From positions 248,001 to 312,000 of the forward strand of contig NZ_JSWF01000014.1 in NCBI RefSeq assembly GCF_000797445.1: a stretch of DNA of 64,000 bases, in the 5' to 3' direction. Under the pieces are notes generated by a model. The model saw only the letters and a program-made list of their open reading frames with translations. It ran no database searches and was not told the DNA's origin. Numbering within the stretch: the first letter of the stretch is position 1; each line of letters begins with the position of its first letter. A program made the translations under genes and the position numbers. Shown in pieces: positions 3,260-62,347 of the stretch. Source of the DNA: Lacinutrix jangbogonensis. Lineage in GTDB: Bacteria; Bacteroidota; Bacteroidia; Flavobacteriales; Flavobacteriaceae.

Positions 3260-4166
3260 TGCACCCAAAAATATGGTAAGCGTATTTGTTTTGGCTTATA
3301 ACCAGGAGGCTTACATTGGGCAAACTATAAATTCCATACTAAATCAAAAAACATCATTTCCAATTAATATTGTTATAGGTGAAGACTCTAGTACAGATAA
3401 TACTTTAGGTGTTATTAAAAGTTTTCAAAAGGGAAATACTGAGAAAATAAAAATAATTACTTAAGAAAATAATATTGGATTAATAAGAAATTTTGTAAGA
3501 ACAATAAAAGAATGTGATGGCAAGTATATTGCTATTTGTGATGGAGACGATTTTTGGGTTGATGAAAATAAATTACAAAATCAAGTTGATTTTTTAGAGG
3601 CTAATAATGATTTCTCAATAGTATTTACGAATAAAAACGATTTATATGAAAACAATGTAATTGTACCTCCCAAAGTTGATAAATTAGACGTTTCAGAATT
3701 TAAGGATTTAGTGAAAGGTAATTATATAGCTTCTGTAACGACTCTTTTTAAAAATAATTTTAATCAAAAAGAAATACCAAAATGGATAGAGAAATATCCT
3801 TATGGCGACTGGCCAATTTATTTGTTAACGGTAAATGACGGCTCTAAAATTAAGTTTTTAAATCAGATTACTGCTAATTATAGAAAGGATATAGGTATTT
3901 CATCTAACATGAGAAAAAATGCGATAATGGTTAGTATAACCAATCTTAGTATTTTAAAAGACATGTATCACGACAAAACTTTTTTTAATAATAAAAGAGT
4001 AATAAAAGAAAGTATAGTAAATCATGAGATACAAGTAATGAGTGCTTTTATTAATAGTAAACAATTTATAAAAGCAACTGTATTATTTATAAAACTTTTG
4101 CCTAATACTAATTTTTCGGATCTATCAAAACGGTTTTTAATGACTTTATACAGAAGTCTTTATTAA
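3252..4166 (+). pseudogene. Family 2 glycosyltransferase interrupted by an in-frame TAA
   Basis: The frame starting at 3252 (or at an internal ATG at 3273, giving MVSVFVLAYNQEAYIGQ) encodes a typical GT2 N-terminus, with LNQKTSFPINIVIGEDSSTD. It stops at a TAA at 3462-3464. The same frame then continues without interruption to 4166 and contains the expected DxD region (CDGDDFWVDENKLQNQVDFLE) and a GT2-like tail (WIEKYPYGDWPIYLL). Restoring one sense codon gives a normal protein of about 304 residues. The reading frame is otherwise intact, so the lesion is recent or is a base-call error. If real, only a 70-residue fragment is made unless translation restarts at 3711. Confidence 0.85.
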
Positions 4167-53839: not shown

Positions 53840-54289
53840 TTACTTGTGTTTGTTCCAATACCGTTTGCCATAGCCACAAAATATTTCTTCACCAGATTTA
53901 ATTTTTTTAGTGGCCTTTAAACAAACATTGTTATCATCGTCTAAAGTGATTTTTGCATTATTATCAAAATTGCTATTAATAGAATCATTCGCGTATTTCG
54001 CAAAGCACTCAGTATGCATACTATCCATAATACTGCCATCTAATAGGTTAATAAAATAGCGATCATTCTTCTTTTGGGCTCTTTCTTGAGCTTCTTTTTC
54101 GGTAAGAATTTCTCCTGTAAAAAGAGATATTATTTCATTTTTATAGAGGTTTATGGCCGTATATAATCCATTACCAGAATTATTTATTTGAGAACCCTTG
54201 ATATATAAATAGTCTTCTTCGGCTGCTTCGATGCTATTTGTTGGTATGTAAAACACTTGAGGATTATATTTTGTCAATTTTTTCATCAA
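53840..54289 (-). CDS. SET-domain protein
   Basis: The 149-residue protein is a compact SET domain: INNSGNGLYTAINLYKNEIISLFTGEI (SET-N), YFINLLDGSIMD, YANDSINSNFDNNAKI (the N-H-type SAM-binding core, here NDSINSN), and KSGEEIFCGYGKRYW (EExxxxYG motif). Bacterial SET proteins methylate lysine on proteins. The start is MMKKLTKYNPQ; either Met is possible. The gene lies next to the histidine kinase gene on the same strand but 44 bp away. Confidence 0.82.
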   Translation of the reverse strand: MMKKLTKYNPQVFYIPTNSIEAAEEDYLYIKGSQINNSGNGLYTAINLYKNEIISLFTGEILTEKEAQERAQKKNDRYFINLLDGSIMDSMHTECFAKYANDSINSNFDNNAKITLDDDNNVCLKATKKIKSGEEIFCGYGKRYWNKHK

Positions 54290-54333: not shown

Positions 54334-55710
54334 TTATTGTTTAAACACAAGTGAAAATGAAGTATAAACACCAACTTCAGAATTAACTAATAAATTCCCT
54401 CCATGTTTTTTCATGATATTTTTAGACAAACTTAATCCTATTCCGGAGCCGTTTTTCTTTGTCGTATAAAATGGAATAAAAATTTGATTCTTAATTTGAT
54501 CTTCTATCCCTTTTCCATTATCATGAATACTAATCACAGTTTTATCTGCTTCAATAACGCAATTAATTTTTAGCAATGGATTTTCGATGCCATGAAGAGC
54601 ATGAATACTGTTATTTATTAAATTAATTAATACTTGTTCAATCAATTTTGTGTCTGCCATAATAGTGGCATTTGCAGGAATATGTGATAACTCCATCGCA
54701 ATATTAGCTTTTTGAATTGATGGTTTCATCAATAATTCAATGGATAATAAAAATGTTTTAATATTCGTTTTATTCAATGTAGGAATGGGAACATTAGATA
54801 TCGTTCTATAGTCCTTAACAAAATCTAATAAGCCGTCAGATCTTCTCTTAATGGTTTTTACGGCCATATTAATATCCTGAATATCTTCGTCATCTAAAGC
54901 TTCAGCTTTTAGTACGTTGCCTTCACTGTCTTCAGTTGTCGATTTTACCGTAGATGCCAAAGAGCTCACAGGTGTAAAAGAATTCAACATTTCATGCGCT
55001 AAAATTTTAATCACATTATGCCAAGCTTCAATCTCTTTTTGTTCAATTTCTGAACGAATATCCTGAAAAGTAATAATAAGATACGTTTTACCTAAGAGTT
55101 GTAATTCAATGGTTTCAAGCGATAACTGTTTCTTTTCTGTTTCTTTCCCAAAGTCCACTAAGGTTTTACCACCTTCAGCAGTTTTTTTTATTTCATTTAC
55201 TAACCAAGGTACACTCTTGGCTAATCTATGCCAGTATTTATGTTTTGGTTGCTGTAATATATCGCAAGCTGCTTTGTTTAAAAACAATATTTCTTCATGA
55301 GATTCATTGGTGTATAAATCATCTTTTTTTATTGATATAATTCCTAAATTAACATGCTCAAGTATATATTTGAAGTATTTGTATTGGGCTTCTTTTTCAA
55401 TTTTATTACGTTTAAAAATTTTAATAATTAAATTAAAATCATCAAATACCTTTGCGAAGGAATCTCCCTTTTTTGAAGGTGAAAAGTAAACGGAATAGTC
55501 TTCATTCTTTAAAGCATCTAGAAATTTTACTAAGGAGTAATTCGTATTATTTACATAGCGAATTAAGAATATTACTTGAATAATTATTAGAAGTCCAACA
55601 CCCATCATGCTAAACCATAAATAGTTCAATAAAAAATAAGAAAAAAGTACACAAGTGACCAGTATGAGTATAATACGAATAGCGACTTGTAAGGTGAATC
55701 TTTTAATCAA
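54334..55710 (-). CDS. Sensor histidine kinase, partner of the sigma-54 activator
   Basis: The 458-residue membrane kinase has two adjacent membrane helices in residues 9-51 with almost no periplasmic loop, a HAMP/linker, and a PAS-like region (about 110-220). The dimerisation H-box is ILAHEMLNSFTPVSSLAST with His239. The HATPase domain has QVLINLINNSIHALHG (N-box), ISIHDNGKGIEDQ (G1) and NGSGIGLSLSKNIMKKHGG (G2). The lack of a sensor loop suggests it detects a membrane or cytoplasmic cue, perhaps the state of the linked exporter. It lies 11 bp downstream of the response-regulator gene on the same strand. Confidence 0.93.
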   Translation of the reverse strand: MIKRFTLQVAIRIILILVTCVLFSYFLLNYLWFSMMGVGLLIIIQVIFLIRYVNNTNYSLVKFLDALKNEDYSVYFSPSKKGDSFAKVFDDFNLIIKIFKRNKIEKEAQYKYFKYILEHVNLGIISIKKDDLYTNESHEEILFLNKAACDILQQPKHKYWHRLAKSVPWLVNEIKKTAEGGKTLVDFGKETEKKQLSLETIELQLLGKTYLIITFQDIRSEIEQKEIEAWHNVIKILAHEMLNSFTPVSSLASTVKSTTEDSEGNVLKAEALDDEDIQDINMAVKTIKRRSDGLLDFVKDYRTISNVPIPTLNKTNIKTFLLSIELLMKPSIQKANIAMELSHIPANATIMADTKLIEQVLINLINNSIHALHGIENPLLKINCVIEADKTVISIHDNGKGIEDQIKNQIFIPFYTTKKNGSGIGLSLSKNIMKKHGGNLLVNSEVGVYTSFSLVFKQ

Positions 55711-55721
55711 AATAATGAATG

Positions 55722-57104
55722 TTATAAATTAAATTTTTCTAATCGACGATAAAGGGCAGCTCTGGTTAAACCTAATTCTTTAGCAGCCTTAGAGATGTTA
55801 CCATCATATTTGTCGATTGCTTTTTGAACTAATAGTTTTTCAATGTCTTGTAGGTTTAAATTATCAAATTCATTGCTGAGCACTTCATTTCCTTTAGGGA
55901 TAATAGTTAGATTAAAATCTGTAGGCAATATTTCATTATTATCAGCCATAATTACACCACGTTCTATAGTATGCTGAATCTCTCTAACATTTCCTGGCCA
56001 TTTATGATCTTGAAGTACTTTCATGGCCTCTTTAGTTATTTTTAAATGAGACTTTTGGTATTTTTCGCTATAGATATTTAAATAATGATTTATAAAATCA
56101 GTAATATCTTTTGGCCTAGCTCTAAGCGGTGGAATTGTGATTTCTACTGTGTTAATTCTAAATAATAAATCTTGTCTAAATTTACCTTGGGCAACCCATT
56201 CGTGAATGGGAACATTTGTAGCAAACAAAAGTCTCGCATTAAAAGGTCTTTCAATACCTTCTCCTAGTCTTGAAGTTTTTTTGTCTTGTAGTACTGTTAA
56301 TAATTTTGATTGTAAATTTAATGGCAAGTTTCCTATTTCATCTAAGAATAACGTGCCATCTTCAGCCATTTCAAAGCGACCTGGCTTGTCTTCTAAAGCA
56401 TCTGTAAAGGCCCCTTTTTTGTGCCCAAAAAGTTCACTTTCAAAAAGGCTTTCAGATAAAGAACCTAAATCTACATGAATAAAAGGCCCATTGTTTTGTG
56501 ACGATTTTTTATGTATTTCTCTAGCTAAATGCTGTTTACCTGTTCCGTTTTCACCTAGTACAATAATGTTTGCATCGGTTATACTTACCTTATCGATAAT
56601 ATTCATGACTTCTTGCATTTCATCAGAGTTGCCAATAACAGGACCGAATTGTTGATCACTACTTTTTAACAAAGTGTCATTAGTATGCTTAAGAATCGAG
56701 ATTTTATGATTTGATCTGCTCAGTGTAAGTCCTGCATGAACAGTAGCTAATAATTTTTCGTTAGTCCAAGGTTTTAGTATAAAGTCGAAAGCACCTAACT
56801 TAATGGCATTAACAGCCAATTCTACTTCTCCATAAGCTGTCATTAAAATTACAACCATCTTTGGATTAATTTTTAGTATATGCTTAAGCCAATACAAGCC
56901 TTCTTTTCCATCGTTAAAACCAATACGGTAGTTCATGTCCAAAACAATAACATCGATTTGCTCTTTTGAAAGTATTTGATTTATTTCTTTTGGATTGTTT
57001 CGTGTAATAACATTATCATAGTGCTTTTTTAATACCAATTTTGCCGATAACAAAATGTCTTCATCATCATCAATAATTAAAATTGAGGCCTTGGTTTTTG
57101 TCAT
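55722..57104 (-). CDS. NtrC-family sigma-54-dependent response regulator
   Basis: The start at 57104 (MTKTKASILIIDDDEDIL) gives 460 residues with the receiver domain at the N-terminus. The in-frame start 75 bp upstream would put the two regulatory palindromes inside the gene. Receiver: DDDED at 12-16 and phospho-acceptor Asp56 (VIVLDMN). AAA+ domain: Walker A GENGTGKQ at 184-191, sigma-54 contact loop GAFTDA at 231-236, Walker B TLFLDE. The C-terminal Fis-type helix-turn-helix reads KAAKELGLTRAALYRRLEK. It should bind upstream sites and drive sigma-54 promoters, evidently the divergent one at 57243. Confidence 0.95.
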   Translation of the reverse strand: MTKTKASILIIDDDEDILLSAKLVLKKHYDNVITRNNPKEINQILSKEQIDVIVLDMNYRIGFNDGKEGLYWLKHILKINPKMVVILMTAYGEVELAVNAIKLGAFDFILKPWTNEKLLATVHAGLTLSRSNHKISILKHTNDTLLKSSDQQFGPVIGNSDEMQEVMNIIDKVSITDANIIVLGENGTGKQHLAREIHKKSSQNNGPFIHVDLGSLSESLFESELFGHKKGAFTDALEDKPGRFEMAEDGTLFLDEIGNLPLNLQSKLLTVLQDKKTSRLGEGIERPFNARLLFATNVPIHEWVAQGKFRQDLLFRINTVEITIPPLRARPKDITDFINHYLNIYSEKYQKSHLKITKEAMKVLQDHKWPGNVREIQHTIERGVIMADNNEILPTDFNLTIIPKGNEVLSNEFDNLNLQDIEKLLVQKAIDKYDGNISKAAKELGLTRAALYRRLEKFNL

Positions 57105-57140
57105 TTTATAAGATCTAGTTATTTTGACTAATGTACAAAA

Positions 57141-57178
57141 TGTTCGATAACGAACAATAAAATGTTCGAAAATGAACA
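57141..57178. promoter_or_regulatory. Paired palindromes: probable enhancer (UAS) for the sigma-54 activator
   Basis: TGTTCGATAACGAACA (57141-57156) is a perfect inverted repeat with a 4-base centre. TGTTCGAAAATGAACA (57163-57178) is the same site with one mismatch. Their centres are 22 bp apart, two helical turns, so two activator dimers could bind on one face. They lie 65-100 bp upstream of the sigma-54 promoter and 37 bp upstream of the activator's own ATG, which fits both activation of the operon and autoregulation. Confidence 0.85.
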
Positions 57179-57242
57179 CTTTTTAATAATCTTAAAAAAC
57201 ATAAATAACTAATAGTAAGCATTTTATGTATTTTATTTTTTA

Positions 57243-57258
57243 TGGCACATCGATTGCT
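57243..57258 (+). promoter_or_regulatory. Sigma-54 (-24/-12) promoter of the peptide-export operon
   Basis: TGGCACATCGATTGCT matches the sigma-54 consensus TGGCAC-N5-TTGCW at every defined base, with GG at -24 (57244-57245) and GC at -12 (57256-57257). The predicted transcription start is about 57268-57270, some 20 bp before the first peptide ATG. It is the only such match I noticed in a non-coding region of the window. Confidence 0.9.
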
Positions 57259-57288
57259 CTTAGCTAGTCAAAATAAAAACATACCATT

Positions 57289-57375
57289 ATGAGAACATTA
57301 AATAACAATCAATTATCAGCAACTCTTACACAAACAAAAAGCCACGCTTGGAATAGTAAGAGACGTTACAGATAA
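57289..57375 (+). CDS. Small cationic peptide gene, copy 1
   Basis: A 28-codon gene directly downstream of the sigma-54 promoter. The peptide starts MRTLNNNQL, has SATLTQTKSHA in the middle and ends WNSKRRYR. It has no signal peptide, no double-glycine leader and no cysteine. The N-terminal half is neutral (Asn/Gln/Thr), the C-terminal half strongly basic with one Trp and one Tyr. No Shine-Dalgarno site is seen, which is normal for the phylum. It is the founder-like first of three tandem copies, with an exporter downstream, so it is a candidate exported signal, toxin or antimicrobial peptide. No known family comes to mind. Confidence 0.75.
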   Translation: MRTLNNNQLSATLTQTKSHAWNSKRRYR

Positions 57376-57426
57376 GTAACTAATTTATAAAATAACATTA
57401 TCATCAATCTATAAAAACAAACTATT

Positions 57427-57513
57427 ATGAGAACATTAAACAACAATCAATTAACAGGAACGCTTACACAAACAAAAAGTCATGCTTGGAATAGTAAGAG
57501 ACGTTACAGATAA
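57427..57513 (+). CDS. Small cationic peptide gene, copy 2
   Basis: This 28-codon gene sits exactly 138 bp after copy 1. It differs at six codons, four of them silent (codons 5, 12, 18, 19) and two conservative (Ser10 to Thr, Ala11 to Gly). The C-terminal WNSKRRYR is identical in protein and DNA. The silent bias is small in number but points to selection on a translated product. The 51-bp spacer is also similar to that after copy 1. Confidence 0.75.
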   Translation: MRTLNNNQLTGTLTQTKSHAWNSKRRYR

Positions 57514-57564
57514 GTAACTGATTTTTAAAATAGCATCATCAATCTATAAAAAAAACATACCATT

Positions 57565-57651
57565 ATGAGAACATTAATCAACAATCAATTAACAGGAACG
57601 CTTACACAAACAAAAAGCCATGTTTGGAATAGTAAGAGACGTTACAGATAA
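57565..57651 (+). CDS. Small cationic peptide gene, copy 3
   Basis: The third 28-codon copy, again exactly 138 bp from the previous one. It has Ile at position 5 in place of Asn and Val at position 20 in place of Ala; the rest equals copy 2 at protein level. Two variants in one copy and full conservation of the basic tail suggest that the tail is the functional part. The spacer behind it contains the expanded TCAA repeat. Confidence 0.75.
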   Translation: MRTLINNQLTGTLTQTKSHVWNSKRRYR

Positions 57652-57675
57652 GTAACCAATGTGTAAAATCGCATC

Positions 57676-57722
<47 letters not shown>

Positions 57723-57730
57723 CAAACAGT

Positions 57731-57850
57731 ATGAAAAAAGCAATAATAATTGAAACCGGACGTGAGCAAAAGCAAAATGACATATTGCTTTTCTTGAGTA
57801 GTAAAAAAATCCATTTATCAGAATTTAATCGACAGTTCTATAACATTTAA
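57731..57850 (+). CDS. Small ORF 4 of the operon, 39 residues
   Basis: ATG at 57731, ten bases after the microsatellite, opens a 39-codon frame starting MKKAIIIETGREQKQND and ending in LSEFNRQFYNI. It is not related to the tandem peptides. An upstream in-frame ATG at 57659 would add 24 residues made mostly of SINQ repeats encoded by the TCAA array; I judge this unlikely, because changes in repeat number would shift it. Position in the operon supports expression. Role unknown; possibly a second peptide or an accessory factor. Confidence 0.45.
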   Translation: MKKAIIIETGREQKQNDILLFLSSKKIHLSEFNRQFYNI

Positions 57851-57861
57851 TCCAAAAAACA

Positions 57862-57927
57862 ATGATTTCAGTATTAATTAAAATCGCAAATTTTATAGTA
57901 GATGTCGTGGTGCTCTGCGTATTCTAA
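57862..57927 (+). CDS. Small ORF 5, 21-residue hydrophobic peptide
   Basis: A 21-codon frame starts MISVLIKIANFIVDVV and ends LCVF, a single potential membrane helix. It begins 11 bp after ORF 4 and ends 33 bp before the adaptor gene. Short hydrophobic peptides next to transporters can be regulators or immunity helpers, but the frame is short enough to occur by chance. Confidence 0.3.
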   Translation: MISVLIKIANFIVDVVVLCVF

Positions 57928-57960
57928 ATACATAGTATTAGAAAAAAAATAAATATCATA

Positions 57961-59223
57961 ATGAAACAAGTAGGAATGGATAAACGGATAGAGAAGAAAA
58001 AATGGAGTCAGACAAAAACACTATACCTTATTGGCTTTATAGCCTTTGTAGTGCTTTCTGGTTTTGGTATCAATGTAATAAATAAAAAAACGTATAAAGT
58101 AGATGGTTCTAGAATTACAGTAAAAACGGTTACAGAAGGTGATTTTCAAGATGTAATTTTAATTGATGGAGACGTACAACCTATAAATCTTGTTTTAGTA
58201 AATACAATGGAAGGCGGAACAGTTGATGAAATTTTTGTTGAAGATGGCATTTTAGTAGAAAAAGGAACACCATTAGTGAAATTAAATAACTCAGCAGCCA
58301 CTTTGAGTTATATGAATCAAGAAACTGCTATTATAGAGCAAATAAATAATTTAAGAAGCTTAAAGTTATCATTAGAAAAAGATCAAAGAGATTTATCAGA
58401 ATCTTTAATCGACAGTGAAAATAGTTTAGCTGATGTTGCACGTGCTTATAAAATAGATTCTGTTTTATATTCAAAAGACATCGTGGCTAAAAATGATTTT
58501 ACAAACTCTAAAGAATCTTATAAATACCAACAAAAGAAGCGTGACTTTACGGATAAAAATGTTAAAAATAGTAAGCGCAATAACTTAACTCAAATTCAGC
58601 AAATTAATAGATCAATTTCGTTAATGCAGAGAAACTTAGAGTTTATTCATGCCAGCATAGATAAAATGTTAGTTCGTGCTCCTGTTTCTGGAATGCTGTC
58701 TTCATTCGATCCTGTAATTGGAGAATCTTACTCTAGAAATCAATCAGTTGCTAAAATAGATGTTCAGTCTGGTTTTAAAATTAGAGGACAAGTAGATGAG
58801 TATTATTTAAGTATGGTAAAGCCAGGACAATTAGCGCGTTTCTCTTTCGATGGTGTGCTTATAGATCTAAAAGTAAAAAAGGTACTTTCAGAAGTTGTGA
58901 ACCGACGTTTTGAAATCGAGTTAATATTTGTAAATGATCCTCCAAAGTCAATTACTAATGGACAATCATTACAAGTGCGTTTAGAACTTTCAAAAGCCCA
59001 AAAGTCAATATTAATTCCACGAGGCAGTTATTTTCAGTCTTCGGGAGGTCAATATGTATTTGTTCTTACCGCAGAAGATGAAGCTTATAAACGCTTTATA
59101 AAACTTGGAAATCAAAATCCTAGCTATTATCAAGTATTAGAAGGTTTAGAAAAAGGAGAAAAAATTATCACTTCATCTTATGATGAATTTAAAAATTACG
59201 AATCAATCAAAATAAACAAATAA
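57961..59223 (+). CDS. HlyD/MacA-type periplasmic adaptor protein
   Basis: The 420-residue protein has one N-terminal membrane helix (about 16-37, LYLIGFIAFVVLSGFGINVI). A split lipoyl domain follows (GGTVDEIFVEDGILVEKGTPLVKL and, after a coiled coil, MLVRAPVSGMLSS). The coiled coil spans about residues 115-235 (EKDQRDLSESLIDSENSLAD). A beta-barrel and C-terminal domain end in ILIPRGSYFQSSGGQYVFVL. It links an inner-membrane ABC permease to an outer-membrane channel. No TolC gene is in this operon, so a shared TolC is implied. The ATPase gene starts 3 bp later. Confidence 0.93.
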   Translation: MKQVGMDKRIEKKKWSQTKTLYLIGFIAFVVLSGFGINVINKKTYKVDGSRITVKTVTEGDFQDVILIDGDVQPINLVLVNTMEGGTVDEIFVEDGILVEKGTPLVKLNNSAATLSYMNQETAIIEQINNLRSLKLSLEKDQRDLSESLIDSENSLADVARAYKIDSVLYSKDIVAKNDFTNSKESYKYQQKKRDFTDKNVKNSKRNNLTQIQQINRSISLMQRNLEFIHASIDKMLVRAPVSGMLSSFDPVIGESYSRNQSVAKIDVQSGFKIRGQVDEYYLSMVKPGQLARFSFDGVLIDLKVKKVLSEVVNRRFEIELIFVNDPPKSITNGQSLQVRLELSKAQKSILIPRGSYFQSSGGQYVFVLTAEDEAYKRFIKLGNQNPSYYQVLEGLEKGEKIITSSYDEFKNYESIKINK

Positions 59224-59226
59224 ATC

Positions 59227-59922
59227 ATGATCAAATTAAACGAACTAACAAAAGTATATCGCACAGATGAAATAGAGTCAACAGCCTTAAATGCTGTTTC
59301 TTTTGAAATTAAACAAGGAGAATTTGTGTCAATAATGGGACCTTCAGGATGTGGGAAATCGACATTATTAAACATTTTAGGGATGCTAGATAAACCAGAA
59401 AGTGGAAGCTATGAGTTTCTAGGTAATGAGGTAGCGCATCTTAATGAAAAAGGAAGATCAGATGTTCGTAAAAAAAACATAGGCTTTATATTTCAAAACT
59501 TTAACCTTATCGATGAGCTTACTGTATTTGAAAACATAGAACTGCCTTTACTTTACAATAAAGTGCCATCAGCAGAAAGAAAACAACGTGTAAATGAACT
59601 AATGGAAAAAATTGGGATTGCACATAGAGCATCTCATTTTCCGCAACAACTATCTGGTGGGCAACAACAACGTGTTGCTGTAGCCAGAGCTTTAATAACA
59701 AAACCACCATTAATTTTAGCTGATGAGCCAACAGGTAACTTGGACAGTTCTCATGGTAATGAAGTTATGGAATTAATGTGCGAATTACACGAAGCGGGAA
59801 CGACTATAGTAATGGTAACGCACTCCTCTCACGATGCTAGTTATTCTGGACGTATTATTAATTTATTAGATGGCGAAGTTGTATCTGAAAAGAAAAACAA
59901 AATAGCGCAATCTGCCATATAA
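59227..59922 (+). CDS. MacB-type ABC transporter ATP-binding protein
   Basis: The 231-residue ATPase has Walker [19 protein letters not shown] (38-46 core), Q-loop [19 protein letters not shown], signature [18 protein letters not shown], Walker [15 protein letters not shown], and switch [10 protein letters not shown]-like MVTHSS. The sequence is of the MacB/LolD/FtsE class, which pairs with FtsX-fold permeases. It is separated from the permease gene by 19 bp. It would drive mechanotransmission rather than transport through the membrane helices. Confidence 0.95.
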
Positions 59923-59941: not shown

Positions 59942-62347
59942 ATGTTTAAGAATTATATAAAAGTGGCTTTTAGAAGCCTCAATAAAAACAGAGTATATGC
60001 GGTCATTAATATTTTAGGACTTGCCTTAGGATTAGCCGTAACAATTCTAGTCTTTCTATTTATTAAAGATGAAACCAGTTACGAGAAACATTGGAGTGGG
60101 TACGAACGTATTTATAGAACCGGAATAAAGGCAGATATGATGGGTCAGAAAATGGATGCTCCTGCATCTCCAAGTCCAATGGCTAATGCCTTTAGAACTG
60201 AATTTACTGATGTAGAATCTGCAACACGAATTAATACTGTACACCAAGAAATATTAGTAAGTCACGAACAAACAAAAGTTTATATTCAAAAAGGAGTTTC
60301 TGTCGATAGTACATTTTTTAATGTATTTGATTACGAATTTGTTCTTGGAGATCCAAAAACAGCATTAAAAGAACCTAATGGGATAGTTTTAACCGAAGCA
60401 ACTGCTTTTAAGCTATTTGGTGACAAAAATGCTCTAGGTGAAGTAATTAAATACGATAACCGTCGCGATTATATTGTAAAGGGAATTGTAAAGGAACCTA
60501 AAGGGCATGCACACTTCCAGTTTAATATGTTTATGGCAGATCACAGTATCACCACAATGTGGATGAACAACAGCTGGATTACTTATGTTAAGCTAAAAGA
60601 AAATGTAGATTATAAAAGTTTTGAAGCAGAAATGCGACGTAATTTTATGAAAAAAATTGAACCAGATGTGGAACGATTTATGCAGGTTACTGTGGAGGAA
60701 TTTATAAAACAAGGTAATGCGTTCGAGTATCAATTAATGCCAGTTAAAGATATCCATTTGTATTCAAATAAAGATTTTGAAGTGCAACAAAATGGAAATA
60801 TTATGTACATTTATGTATTTATGGGAATTGCGTTTTTAGTGATCATAATTGCGGGAATTAATTTCATGAACTTATCGACTGCCAGAGCTGGCAAACGTGC
60901 TAAAGAAGTAGGTGTTAGAAAAGTATCAGGTGCTTCACGTAAAATGCTTATTACTCAATTTTTAATTGAATCTGTCATTCAAAGTTTTATAGCACTCTTT
61001 ATAGCATACATTTTAGTAGAATTATTTTTACCAGGTTTTAATAATATTATGGAGACTAATATTAATCTCTTTAATGAATATTTAGGGAAAACCATATTGT
61101 TTTCAGTACTTGTAACTTTATTCTATGGTCTTTTTGCAGGTAGTTATCCAGCATTCTTTATCTCTGCATTTAAACCTATTTCAGTATTAAAAGGTGATTT
61201 AACAAAAACTAAAGGTGGAGCGCTTTTAAGAAAAGGACTTGTAATTACGCAGTTTACGGCTTCAACAGTCTTGATTATTGGTATGATAATTATCTTTAAA
61301 CAAATTTCGTTTTTGCATAATAAAGATATTGGATTTAAGGGTGATCAAGTTATTGTTGTGCCTTTGCAAACCGATGATATGACAGAGAATTTTAGAAACT
61401 ACAAAAATGTATTTCTAAAAAATAGTAATGTACAAAGTATAACAAGAGCATCATATTACCCTGGAGATATTCCGAATCAAAACATGTTTTCTTTAGAAGG
61501 AAGTGAAGAAAAATTACCACTATGGAATATGGAGGTCGATTATGATTTTTTCAAGACTTTAAGTATTGAAATGTTTGAAGGACGTAAATTTAATGTAGAA
61601 AAAGATTCAGACTCTTTTCCAAGTTATATTTTAAACGAAGCAGCTGTTAACAATTTGAATATAGAAAATGCAGTAGGTAAACGTTTAGGAAGGTTTCGTG
61701 GTCCAGAAGGCAACTTACAATACGGAAATGTTATTGGTATTGTAAAAGATTTTCATATTGAAGGCTTTAATCAAGAAATAAGACCAATGGTATTAACCGT
61801 AAGTAATCAAGTTTGGTTTGCATCTTTTAAGATAGCAAATACAGATAGGAACAAAACGATAGCATTTATTGAAGGCGAATGGAATAAGCTAGAACCATCT
61901 CACCCATTTCGTTATACGTTTTTAGATCAAAAATTTGGAGCTTTATTGAAGCAACAAGAAAATTTTGGAACTATGTTTTTGTTTTTAACTATTCTTGCTA
62001 TTATTATTTCAGCAATGGGATTATATGGTCTTGCTTCTTACACAGCGGCTCAACGTACTAAGGAAATTGGTATTAGAAAAGTTTTAGGAGCCTCTGTTCC
62101 TAATGTTATGAAAATGCTAACCAAGGATTTTATTAAATTAGTACTGATTGCAAATTTCTTTGCTTGGCCTATTACTTATTTACTTGCCAAAAATTGGCTT
62201 ACAAACTTTTCATATCAAATAGATATGCCAATTATGCCATTTATATTTGCGACAGTATTAGCGTTAGTTATAGCATTAATTACAGTAAGCTTTCAAGCTT
62301 ATCAAGCGGCTACATCAGACCCTGTTCACGCCTTAAAATATGAATAA
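59942..62347 (+). CDS. MacB/FtsX-family ABC permease, 801 residues
   Basis: The protein has the duplicated layout usual in Bacteroidota: a first helix (YAVINILGLALGLAVTILVFLFI, about 20-42), a MacB periplasmic core, and an FtsX three-helix block (about 285-430, MYIYVFMGIAFLVIIIAGIN then STARAGKRAKEVGVRK). A second periplasmic core and a second FtsX block at the C-terminus follow (FLFLTILAIIISAMGLYGLA, RTKEIGIRKVLGASV). Both GKRAKEVGVRK and RTKEIGIRK coupling motifs are present. With the adaptor and ATPase it forms a MacAB-type pump. The cargo could be the small peptides encoded upstream (inference). Confidence 0.93.
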   Translation: MFKNYIKVAFRSLNKNRVYAVINILGLALGLAVTILVFLFIKDETSYEKHWSGYERIYRTGIKADMMGQKMDAPASPSPMANAFRTEFTDVESATRINTVHQEILVSHEQTKVYIQKGVSVDSTFFNVFDYEFVLGDPKTALKEPNGIVLTEATAFKLFGDKNALGEVIKYDNRRDYIVKGIVKEPKGHAHFQFNMFMADHSITTMWMNNSWITYVKLKENVDYKSFEAEMRRNFMKKIEPDVERFMQVTVEEFIKQGNAFEYQLMPVKDIHLYSNKDFEVQQNGNIMYIYVFMGIAFLVIIIAGINFMNLSTARAGKRAKEVGVRKVSGASRKMLITQFLIESVIQSFIALFIAYILVELFLPGFNNIMETNINLFNEYLGKTILFSVLVTLFYGLFAGSYPAFFISAFKPISVLKGDLTKTKGGALLRKGLVITQFTASTVLIIGMIIIFKQISFLHNKDIGFKGDQVIVVPLQTDDMTENFRNYKNVFLKNSNVQSITRASYYPGDIPNQNMFSLEGSEEKLPLWNMEVDYDFFKTLSIEMFEGRKFNVEKDSDSFPSYILNEAAVNNLNIENAVGKRLGRFRGPEGNLQYGNVIGIVKDFHIEGFNQEIRPMVLTVSNQVWFASFKIANTDRNKTIAFIEGEWNKLEPSHPFRYTFLDQKFGALLKQQENFGTMFLFLTILAIIISAMGLYGLASYTAAQRTKEIGIRKVLGASVPNVMKMLTKDFIKLVLIANFFAWPITYLLAKNWLTNFSYQIDMPIMPFIFATVLALVIALITVSFQAYQAATSDPVHALKYE

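What the first reader, a model, noticed from the sequence alone, without database searches (positions are those of the whole stretch)
57141..57258. Complete sigma-54 control region with two phased palindromes
TGGCAC-N5-TTGCT fits the consensus fully, and the TGTTCG-N4-CGAACA sites have centres 22 bp apart on the same helix face, about 90 bp upstream. They also sit just upstream of the activator's own start, which supports the shorter start at 57104 and suggests autoregulation. This gives a concrete binding motif for predicting the regulon elsewhere in the genome.
Basis: partly seen in the sequence, partly recalled or inferred. Interest (0 to 1): 0.65.

Follow-up and report, generated by a model that had tools for sequence, protein, structure and literature searches.

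The report
Dedicated sigma-54 switch for an exporter
A flavobacterium carries a conserved, single-purpose genetic switch that turns on a membrane pump together with several tiny proteins that match no family model in the two libraries searched; the switch is now described precisely enough to test, and the role of the tiny proteins is open.

Summary
In detail: palindromes at 57141-57156 (perfect) and 57163-57178 (one mismatch), 22 bp apart, and a perfect -24/-12 element at 57243-57258. In 299 family genomes the tandem operator (up to 2 mismatches) occurs in 20, once each, always 12-42 bp from the orthologous activator's start, with no control hits. In 22 orthologous regions the second site ends 62-64 bp before -24. 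But no second operator was found in the genome, so there is no regulon to predict. Missed were a third conserved element, degenerate here, and what the promoter drives: three tandem 28-aa micro-ORFs, one of 39 aa and an amphipathic one of 21 aa, then a MacA/MacB/Dar-like exporter. Related copies show coding selection; none reached a Pfam or NCBIfam family. The 28-aa family occurs in 104 of 299 family genomes. Most likely: a one-target envelope or peptide-export module with co-induced microproteins of unknown action.

The parts
57141..57156 (.). Operator site 1, TGTTCGATAACGAACA; lies in the spacer of the activator's own predicted promoter
57163..57178 (.). Operator site 2, TGTTCGAAAATGAACA, 22 bp from site 1
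57209..57219 (.). Third conserved element, degenerate here (CTAATAGTAAG, 3 mismatches to CTGATWATCAG); role inferred (bending protein or second factor)
57243..57258 (+). sigma-54 -24/-12 element TGGCACATCGATTGCT, 64 bp after site 2
   Evidence: rpoN
57128..57157 (-). Predicted housekeeping promoter of the activator-kinase operon: TTG (57155-57157), N19, TACATTAG (57128-57135)
   Evidence: TTG 20 of 22, TAnnTT 21 of 22, both 20 of 22
55722..57104 (-). NtrC-type response regulator, 460 aa, start at 57104; sigma-54 contact loop GAFTDA
54334..55710 (-). Sensor histidine kinase; hydropathy suggests two adjoining N-terminal membrane helices; H239
57275..57688 (+). Three tandem 138-bp repeats, each with one micro-ORF of family (a)
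57289..57375 (+). micro-ORF (a)1, 28 aa
57427..57513 (+). micro-ORF (a)2, 28 aa
57565..57651 (+). micro-ORF (a)3, 28 aa
57731..57850 (+). micro-ORF (b), 39 aa; b-type ORFs in 12 of 22 orthologous regions (classified by eye)
57862..57927 (+). micro-ORF (c), 21 aa, hydrophobic and amphipathic
57961..59223 (+). HlyD/MacA-type periplasmic adaptor
59227..59922 (+). ABC ATPase
59942..62347 (+). MacB/FtsX-type permease

Best explanation
This is the dedicated control region of a two-component, sigma-54-dependent exporter module. Shown by sequence: a kinase-activator pair and a divergent micro-ORF/exporter operon share one intergenic region with two operators and a -24/-12 element in rigid spacing, conserved with the activator. 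Inferred: the kinase senses an envelope or peptide signal and phosphorylates the activator; activator dimers on the two same-face sites assemble the AAA+ ring, reach RNA polymerase-sigma-54 at 57243 by looping and switch on one operon that makes microproteins (a)x3, (b), (c) and the adaptor-ATPase-permease exporter. Binding at site 1, inside the spacer of the activator's own housekeeping-type promoter, would limit its own synthesis. No second target is apparent in the genome. The micro-ORFs are very probably translated products; my best guess for (c) is a small membrane or amphipathic peptide that works with the exporter or the kinase.
For: Operator pair once per genome and beside the activator in 20 of 299 genomes, reversed control 0 (places); no second pair in the own genome. 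Site 2 to -24 is 62-64 bp in 21 of 22 regions by script; the 22nd (L074, TGGTAT variant) has its element at the same place. Among L013-L035, 22 of 23 have two sites at 22 bp, and the six loci with a different recognition helix (L036-L038, L040-L042) have none. Kinase, activator, adaptor, ATPase and permease found together in 19 of 19 loci compared, one being the own-genome paralogue. rpoN. TTG-N19-TAnnTT over site 1 in 20 of 22. Micro-ORFs: pN<pS in 404 of 406 pairs of 29 (a) genes (pairs not independent); (c) 6 synonymous, 0 nonsynonymous changes L082/L083; (b) 8 and 2 in L082/L055; (c)-like ORF in 16 of 17 regions with at least 100 bp of room, 0.03 expected.
Against: No binding, transcript or phenotype data. 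Two of the three TTG bases are part of the operator. The perfect consensus is not the conserved state: -24 is TGGCAC in 13 of 22 (TGGCAT 7, CGGCAT 1, TGGTAT 1) and -12 is TTGA in 18 of 22, TTGC in 3. The loop is GAFTDA in 18 of 23, GAFTNA in 2, not matched in 3, never GAFTGA. The third element was read off the alignment on which it was then counted, and is degenerate here. Signal and substrate are unknown.
Confidence: 0.85

Rival explanations
1. The micro-ORFs are leader peptides: ribosome stalling near their stop codons controls the exporter, and the peptides have no function of their own.
For: They lie between promoter and first large gene. (a), (b)-type and home-locus peptides often carry a W followed a few residues later by [KR]R[YF] close to the stop (by eye). 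(a) copies also stand before an ABC ATPase and a kinase elsewhere (genes named by reading).
Against: In 74 of 93 (a) clusters an upstream motif of the home type is present (no shuffle control), and in the own C19 array a strong terminator follows the last micro-ORF (the only home array scanned), leaving nothing downstream to regulate. RNA 57269-57960 folds no better than shuffles (z 0.36) and no terminator-like site lies on the + strand of 57100-58000. (c) is conserved as an amphipathic pattern along its length.
Confidence: 0.2
2. (c) is a secreted or membrane-active amphipathic peptide (like phenol-soluble modulins or type I toxin peptides, both recalled), and the exporter is its export or immunity pump.
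For: 20-21 aa, no leader, polar residues at 3, 7, 14, 17; hydrophobic moment above shuffles at p<0.08 in 13 of 14 peptides, p<0.05 in 9 of 14; encoded before a Dar/MacB-like exporter.
Against: Few charges; equally a single membrane helix. Four of 22 regions have only 24-61 bp after the promoter and no (c) (L069, L070, L078, L080), so the exporter exists without it; in L067 no (c) ORF is open.
Confidence: 0.25
3. (c) is a small membrane subunit that tunes the permease or the kinase (as AcrZ or MgrB do; recalled).
For: Size, hydrophobicity, polar stripe; one match only in the own genome, in this operon (short query); kinase with little room for an external sensor (hydropathy).
Against: No interaction evidence; missing from four of 22 regions.
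Confidence: 0.4
4. Another regulator binds the palindromes and the activator binds elsewhere.
For: No binding experiment exists; the third element could be the activator's site.
Against: Pair and activator together in 20 of 20 genomes; pair absent where the recognition helix differs (six loci); 33 of 62 distant activator loci keep a pair at 21-23 bp, 0.02 expected, though 29 of 62 do not.
Confidence: 0.04

Closest known systems
NtrC-family sigma-54 activators with paired upstream sites
   Same: receiver, AAA+ and Fis-type HTH; paired palindromes about 100 bp upstream; -24/-12 element; adjacent kinase
   Different: GAFTDA loop; one target apparent; site 1 inside the divergent promoter; third conserved element
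In silico sigma-54 control of ABC-type antimicrobial-peptide permeases, COG0577, in Bacteroidia (PMC12316311; passages read)
   Same: same class of permease and of promoter; the authors call it the first evidence for this link
   Different: the passages seen give no operator, activator pairing or microproteins
Flavobacterium psychrophilum sigma-54 regulon, motif SM4 (PMC9723704; abstract, passages, section 15 part 1 of 2 and section 20 read)
   Same: mapped -24/-12 promoters with chaperone and envelope genes; sigma-A box TAnnTTTG
   Different: no exporter of this type in the selection of SM4 promoters in Table 2
DarBCD darobactin exporter (NCBIfam)
   Same: best family for adaptor (DarC) and ATPase (DarD); second for the permease (DarB, after ADOP)
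   Different: all three below curated cut-offs
BceRS-BceAB peptide-sensing modules (recalled)
   Same: kinase with little external domain beside an ABC exporter
   Different: NtrC-type regulator, adaptor plus MacB-type permease

Membership tests
sigma-54 promoter with NtrC-type activator | -24 GG / -12 element | tested here: met
sigma-54 promoter with NtrC-type activator | rpoN in the genome | tested here: met
   PF00309 over cut-off
sigma-54 promoter with NtrC-type activator | receiver, sigma-54 AAA+ domain, Fis-type HTH | tested here: met
sigma-54 promoter with NtrC-type activator | GAFTGA sigma-54 contact loop | tested here: inconclusive
   GAFTDA here; whether this variant works as well was not tested
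sigma-54 promoter with NtrC-type activator | upstream sites conserved with the activator | tested here: met
sigma-54 promoter with NtrC-type activator | activator- and ATP-dependent open complex | not testable with these tools
   needs in vitro transcription
DarBCD darobactin exporter | curated NCBIfam cut-offs | tested here: not met
   DarC 182 of 450 bits, DarD 280 of 375, DarB 120 of 700
BceRS-BceAB | intramembrane-sensing kinase with very short loop | tested here: inconclusive
   hydropathy only
BceRS-BceAB | OmpR-type regulator, no adaptor (features recalled) | tested here: not met
   NtrC-type regulator and HlyD-type adaptor
Modulin-like peptides | 20-25 aa, leaderless, amphipathic (features recalled) | tested here: met
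Modulin-like peptides | secretion and membrane activity | not testable with these tools
   no expression data
Attenuator leader peptide | terminator or alternative structure before the regulated gene | tested here: not met

The most novel reading that the evidence does not exclude
A sigma-54 switch in flavobacteria controls a leaderless amphipathic peptide (c) together with its own Dar/MacB-like exporter and further microproteins: a Gram-negative peptide-secretion module with modulin-like peptides. The 28-aa family (a) would be a general flavobacterial microprotein, normally made from its own locus and recruited into operons such as this one.
Probability: 0.25. Interest if true: 0.8.

Novelty: new variant of a known kind. 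Interest (0 to 1): 0.6.

Why it matters
It gives a sigma-54 activator of Bacteroidota a base-precise operator, one apparent target and a predicted autoregulatory layout, all testable. It also brings out micro-ORF families under coding selection that reach no Pfam or NCBIfam model, one of them in 104 of 299 family genomes, beside an exporter whose substrate is unknown.

Tried and rejected
Regulon prediction: operator pair sought in the own genome in two forms, and the single site once; nothing outside this locus. Rfam on 56500-58500 with max E 5: six matches, all far below gathering scores. Attenuation: no terminator-like site on the + strand, no unusual fold. Darobactin-like product: the (a) peptides share W-N with the darobactin core (recalled); none of the six proteins run through Pfam is a radical SAM enzyme, the other ORFs were not run; set aside. 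SET-domain protein as a modifier of the peptides: no relative at E 1e-8 in the 19 loci; set aside. Own paralogous module (L047): no TGTTCG pair in its gap (by eye). Literature: ten searches; in the listings I recognised no paper on this operator or these micro-ORFs. Passages of PMC11237479 were read and not used. The library lacks most subscription papers. PHROGs and PADLOC were not searched.

Rows dropped or faulty: one search used loci in mixed orientation and was redone. In one search the (b) row L082/L083 is off frame and not used. In one search L055 was dropped (anchor failed; 21 rows) and re-anchored (22 rows). In one search one of 63 distant loci had too little sequence (62 used), and five of 22 regions with under 100 bp after the promoter were left out of the (c) test; one of these, L081 (same contig as L058), does hold a (c)-like ORF. 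L235 gave no peptide (93 clusters left). The list was truncated, and three clusters chosen from it (G194, G210, G107) were not fetched, so 93 is a sample.

Full report
1. What is there. The sequence is as described: a perfect TGTTCG-N4-CGAACA, a second site with one mismatch, starts 22 bp apart, and TGGCAC-N5-TTGCT beginning 64 bp after site 2. The activator (receiver, sigma-54 AAA+ domain, Fis-type HTH) reads leftward from 57104, the kinase follows, and the rpoN domain is found once in the genome. Start 57104 fits: 21 of the 22 orthologues L014-L035 align from residue 1, while the longer frame from 57179 would run through the operator.

2. More than chance? Not the single motifs: palindrome with up to two mismatches 2 in the window, 1.23 expected; single palindrome in the genome 3 strand hits against 1 control; exact -24/-12 2 against 1 control. 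The pair is: one place in 4.0 Mb at up to three mismatches or with relaxed half-sites and gap, controls 0. In 299 family genomes it is in 20, once each, reversed control 0 throughout, and by coordinates the near edge lies 12-42 bp from the start of the orthologous activator in all 20. Of the 23 best orthologues (L013-L035), three (G288, G109, G259) fall below that threshold; with each site allowed three mismatches, 22 of 23 have two sites at 22 bp, L022 being the exception. L039 has two at 20 bp. Six loci with a different recognition helix (L036-L038, L040-L042) have none. In named records 16 of 17 near loci and 33 of 62 distant ones keep a pair, at 22 and 21-23 bp, against 0.00 and 0.02 expected; 29 distant loci do not. 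The named and unnamed sets share genomes.

3. Architecture. In 22 orthologous regions anchored on site 1, site 2 to -24 measures 62-64 bp in 21 by script, and the 22nd (L074, TGGTAT variant) has its element at the same place. -24 is TGGCAC in 13 of 22, -12 is TTGA in 18 of 22, so the full consensus seen here is not the common state. On the other strand TTG (20 of 22), 19 bp and TAnnTT (21 of 22) form a likely promoter for the activator-kinase operon; TAnnTTTG is the sigma-A box reported for F. psychrophilum (PMC9723704), the TTG at -33 is recalled. Site 1 lies in that spacer. Two of the three TTG bases belong to the operator, so TAnnTT is the independent part. Autorepression is the simplest reading, untested. 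A third element, CTGATWATCAG, read off the same alignment, has its best match 29-30 bp after site 2 in 17 of 21 regions, 12 of them with at most two mismatches; L067, L068, L076 and L082 do not show it there, and in this window it has three mismatches.

4. What the promoter drives. Before the adaptor gene at 57961 lie three 138-bp repeats, each with a 28-codon ORF (a), then ORFs (b) of 39 and (c) of 21 codons. No terminator-like site lies on that strand in 57100-58000. By eye, (a) is in 3 of 22 orthologous regions (window, L048, L068) and (b)-type ORFs in 12. A (c)-like ORF (19-22 aa, mean hydropathy at least 1.5) is in 16 of the 17 regions with 100 bp or more of room, 0.03 expected, and in L081 (as L058); L067 lacks it; four regions (L069, L070, L078, L080) have 24-61 bp and none. 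Coding selection: (a) pN<pS in 404 of 406 pairs from 29 loci; (b) 8 synonymous and 2 nonsynonymous changes L082/L055; (c) 6 and 0 L082/L083, 4 and 0 L082/L055; more diverged pairs also have pN below pS. (c) has polar residues at 3, 7, 14, 17 and a hydrophobic moment above shuffles at p<0.08 in 13 of 14 peptides (p<0.05 in 9; L073 p 0.49). Peptides tested reached no NCBIfam family; in Pfam the one hit is sub-threshold, E 0.073, for a home-locus b peptide.

5. Family (a) elsewhere. Twelve copies in this genome, at least one in 104 of 299 family genomes at E 0.001, and among 198 genomes drawn from the class only in the own one; at least five of the others are of this family. Of 93 clusters sampled, 74 have a motif of the GTACTGTA/CATAGTACTGT kind within 220 bp upstream, mostly at 60-100 bp (no shuffle control). 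In the own genome CATAGTACTGTA is found exactly twice, both in the C19 array; with one mismatch it is no commoner than the control (13 against 17). The C19 array ends in a strong terminator after its (b)-type ORF. An ExbD-like ORF is near in 16 of 29 loci and 22 of 59. Clusters without the motif include this one and those before an ABC ATPase (C33, L185, L222) or a kinase (C29, L211), genes named by reading. So (a) peptides look like products in their own right, here placed behind a sigma-54 promoter.

6. The exporter. Adaptor and ATPase score best against DarC and DarD, the permease against ADOP, then DarB and MacB, all below curated cut-offs; the adaptor passes only the general RND_mfp subfamily (109 of 94.9 bits). 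Hydropathy of the kinase shows two adjoining helices in residues 1-56, as in kinases that sense through a membrane partner (recalled). PMC12316311 (passages) reports enrichment of predicted sigma-54 promoters before antimicrobial-peptide ABC permeases in Bacteroidia; this locus would be a concrete case with activator and operator.

7. Verdict. The control region is real, conserved and, as far as the searches go, dedicated to one operon. As a sigma-54 system it is of a known kind. New here are the one-operator-one-operon pairing across 299 genomes, its overlap with the activator's promoter, the third element and the micro-ORF cassette. What the microproteins do is open: tuning the pump or kinase, cargo, and leader are ranked in that order.

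Noticed in passing
L007 (own contig C19) 1381-2600: Five (a) micro-ORFs in two sub-arrays, each behind a CATAGTACTGTA motif, then a 44-aa (b)-type ORF and a strong terminator.
   Followed up: yes
L012 (own C33) 1501-1733; L046 (own C29) near 3465; L011 (own C30) near 1501: Further (a) copies before an ABC ATPase, before a histidine kinase, and before a carboxymuconolactone-decarboxylase-like gene (genes named by reading, no family search).
   Followed up: partly
53840-54289 (-): Small SET-domain protein behind the kinase; no relative in the 19 loci.
   Followed up: partly
57676-57720: Run of ATCA tetranucleotide repeats between (a)3 and (b), possibly length-variable.
   Followed up: no
57119-57130 and 57265-57276: Perfect 12-bp inverted repeat; its right arm overlaps the inferred sigma-54 start of transcription. 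By eye it is not conserved in the orthologues printed.
   Followed up: partly
L047 3808-11001 (own C12): Second activator/exporter module of the same layout in this genome, without the TGTTCG pair.
   Followed up: partly
L067, between promoter and adaptor: No open (c) frame in this MAG, although a (b)-type ORF is intact.
   Followed up: no
L062-L065: Distant modules with two or three permease genes in a row (two in L063, L064, L065; three in L062).
   Followed up: no
Pedobacter loci among L089-L144: Operator pairs mostly at 21 bp spacing, with GGC rather than TTGC at the -12 position.
   Followed up: no
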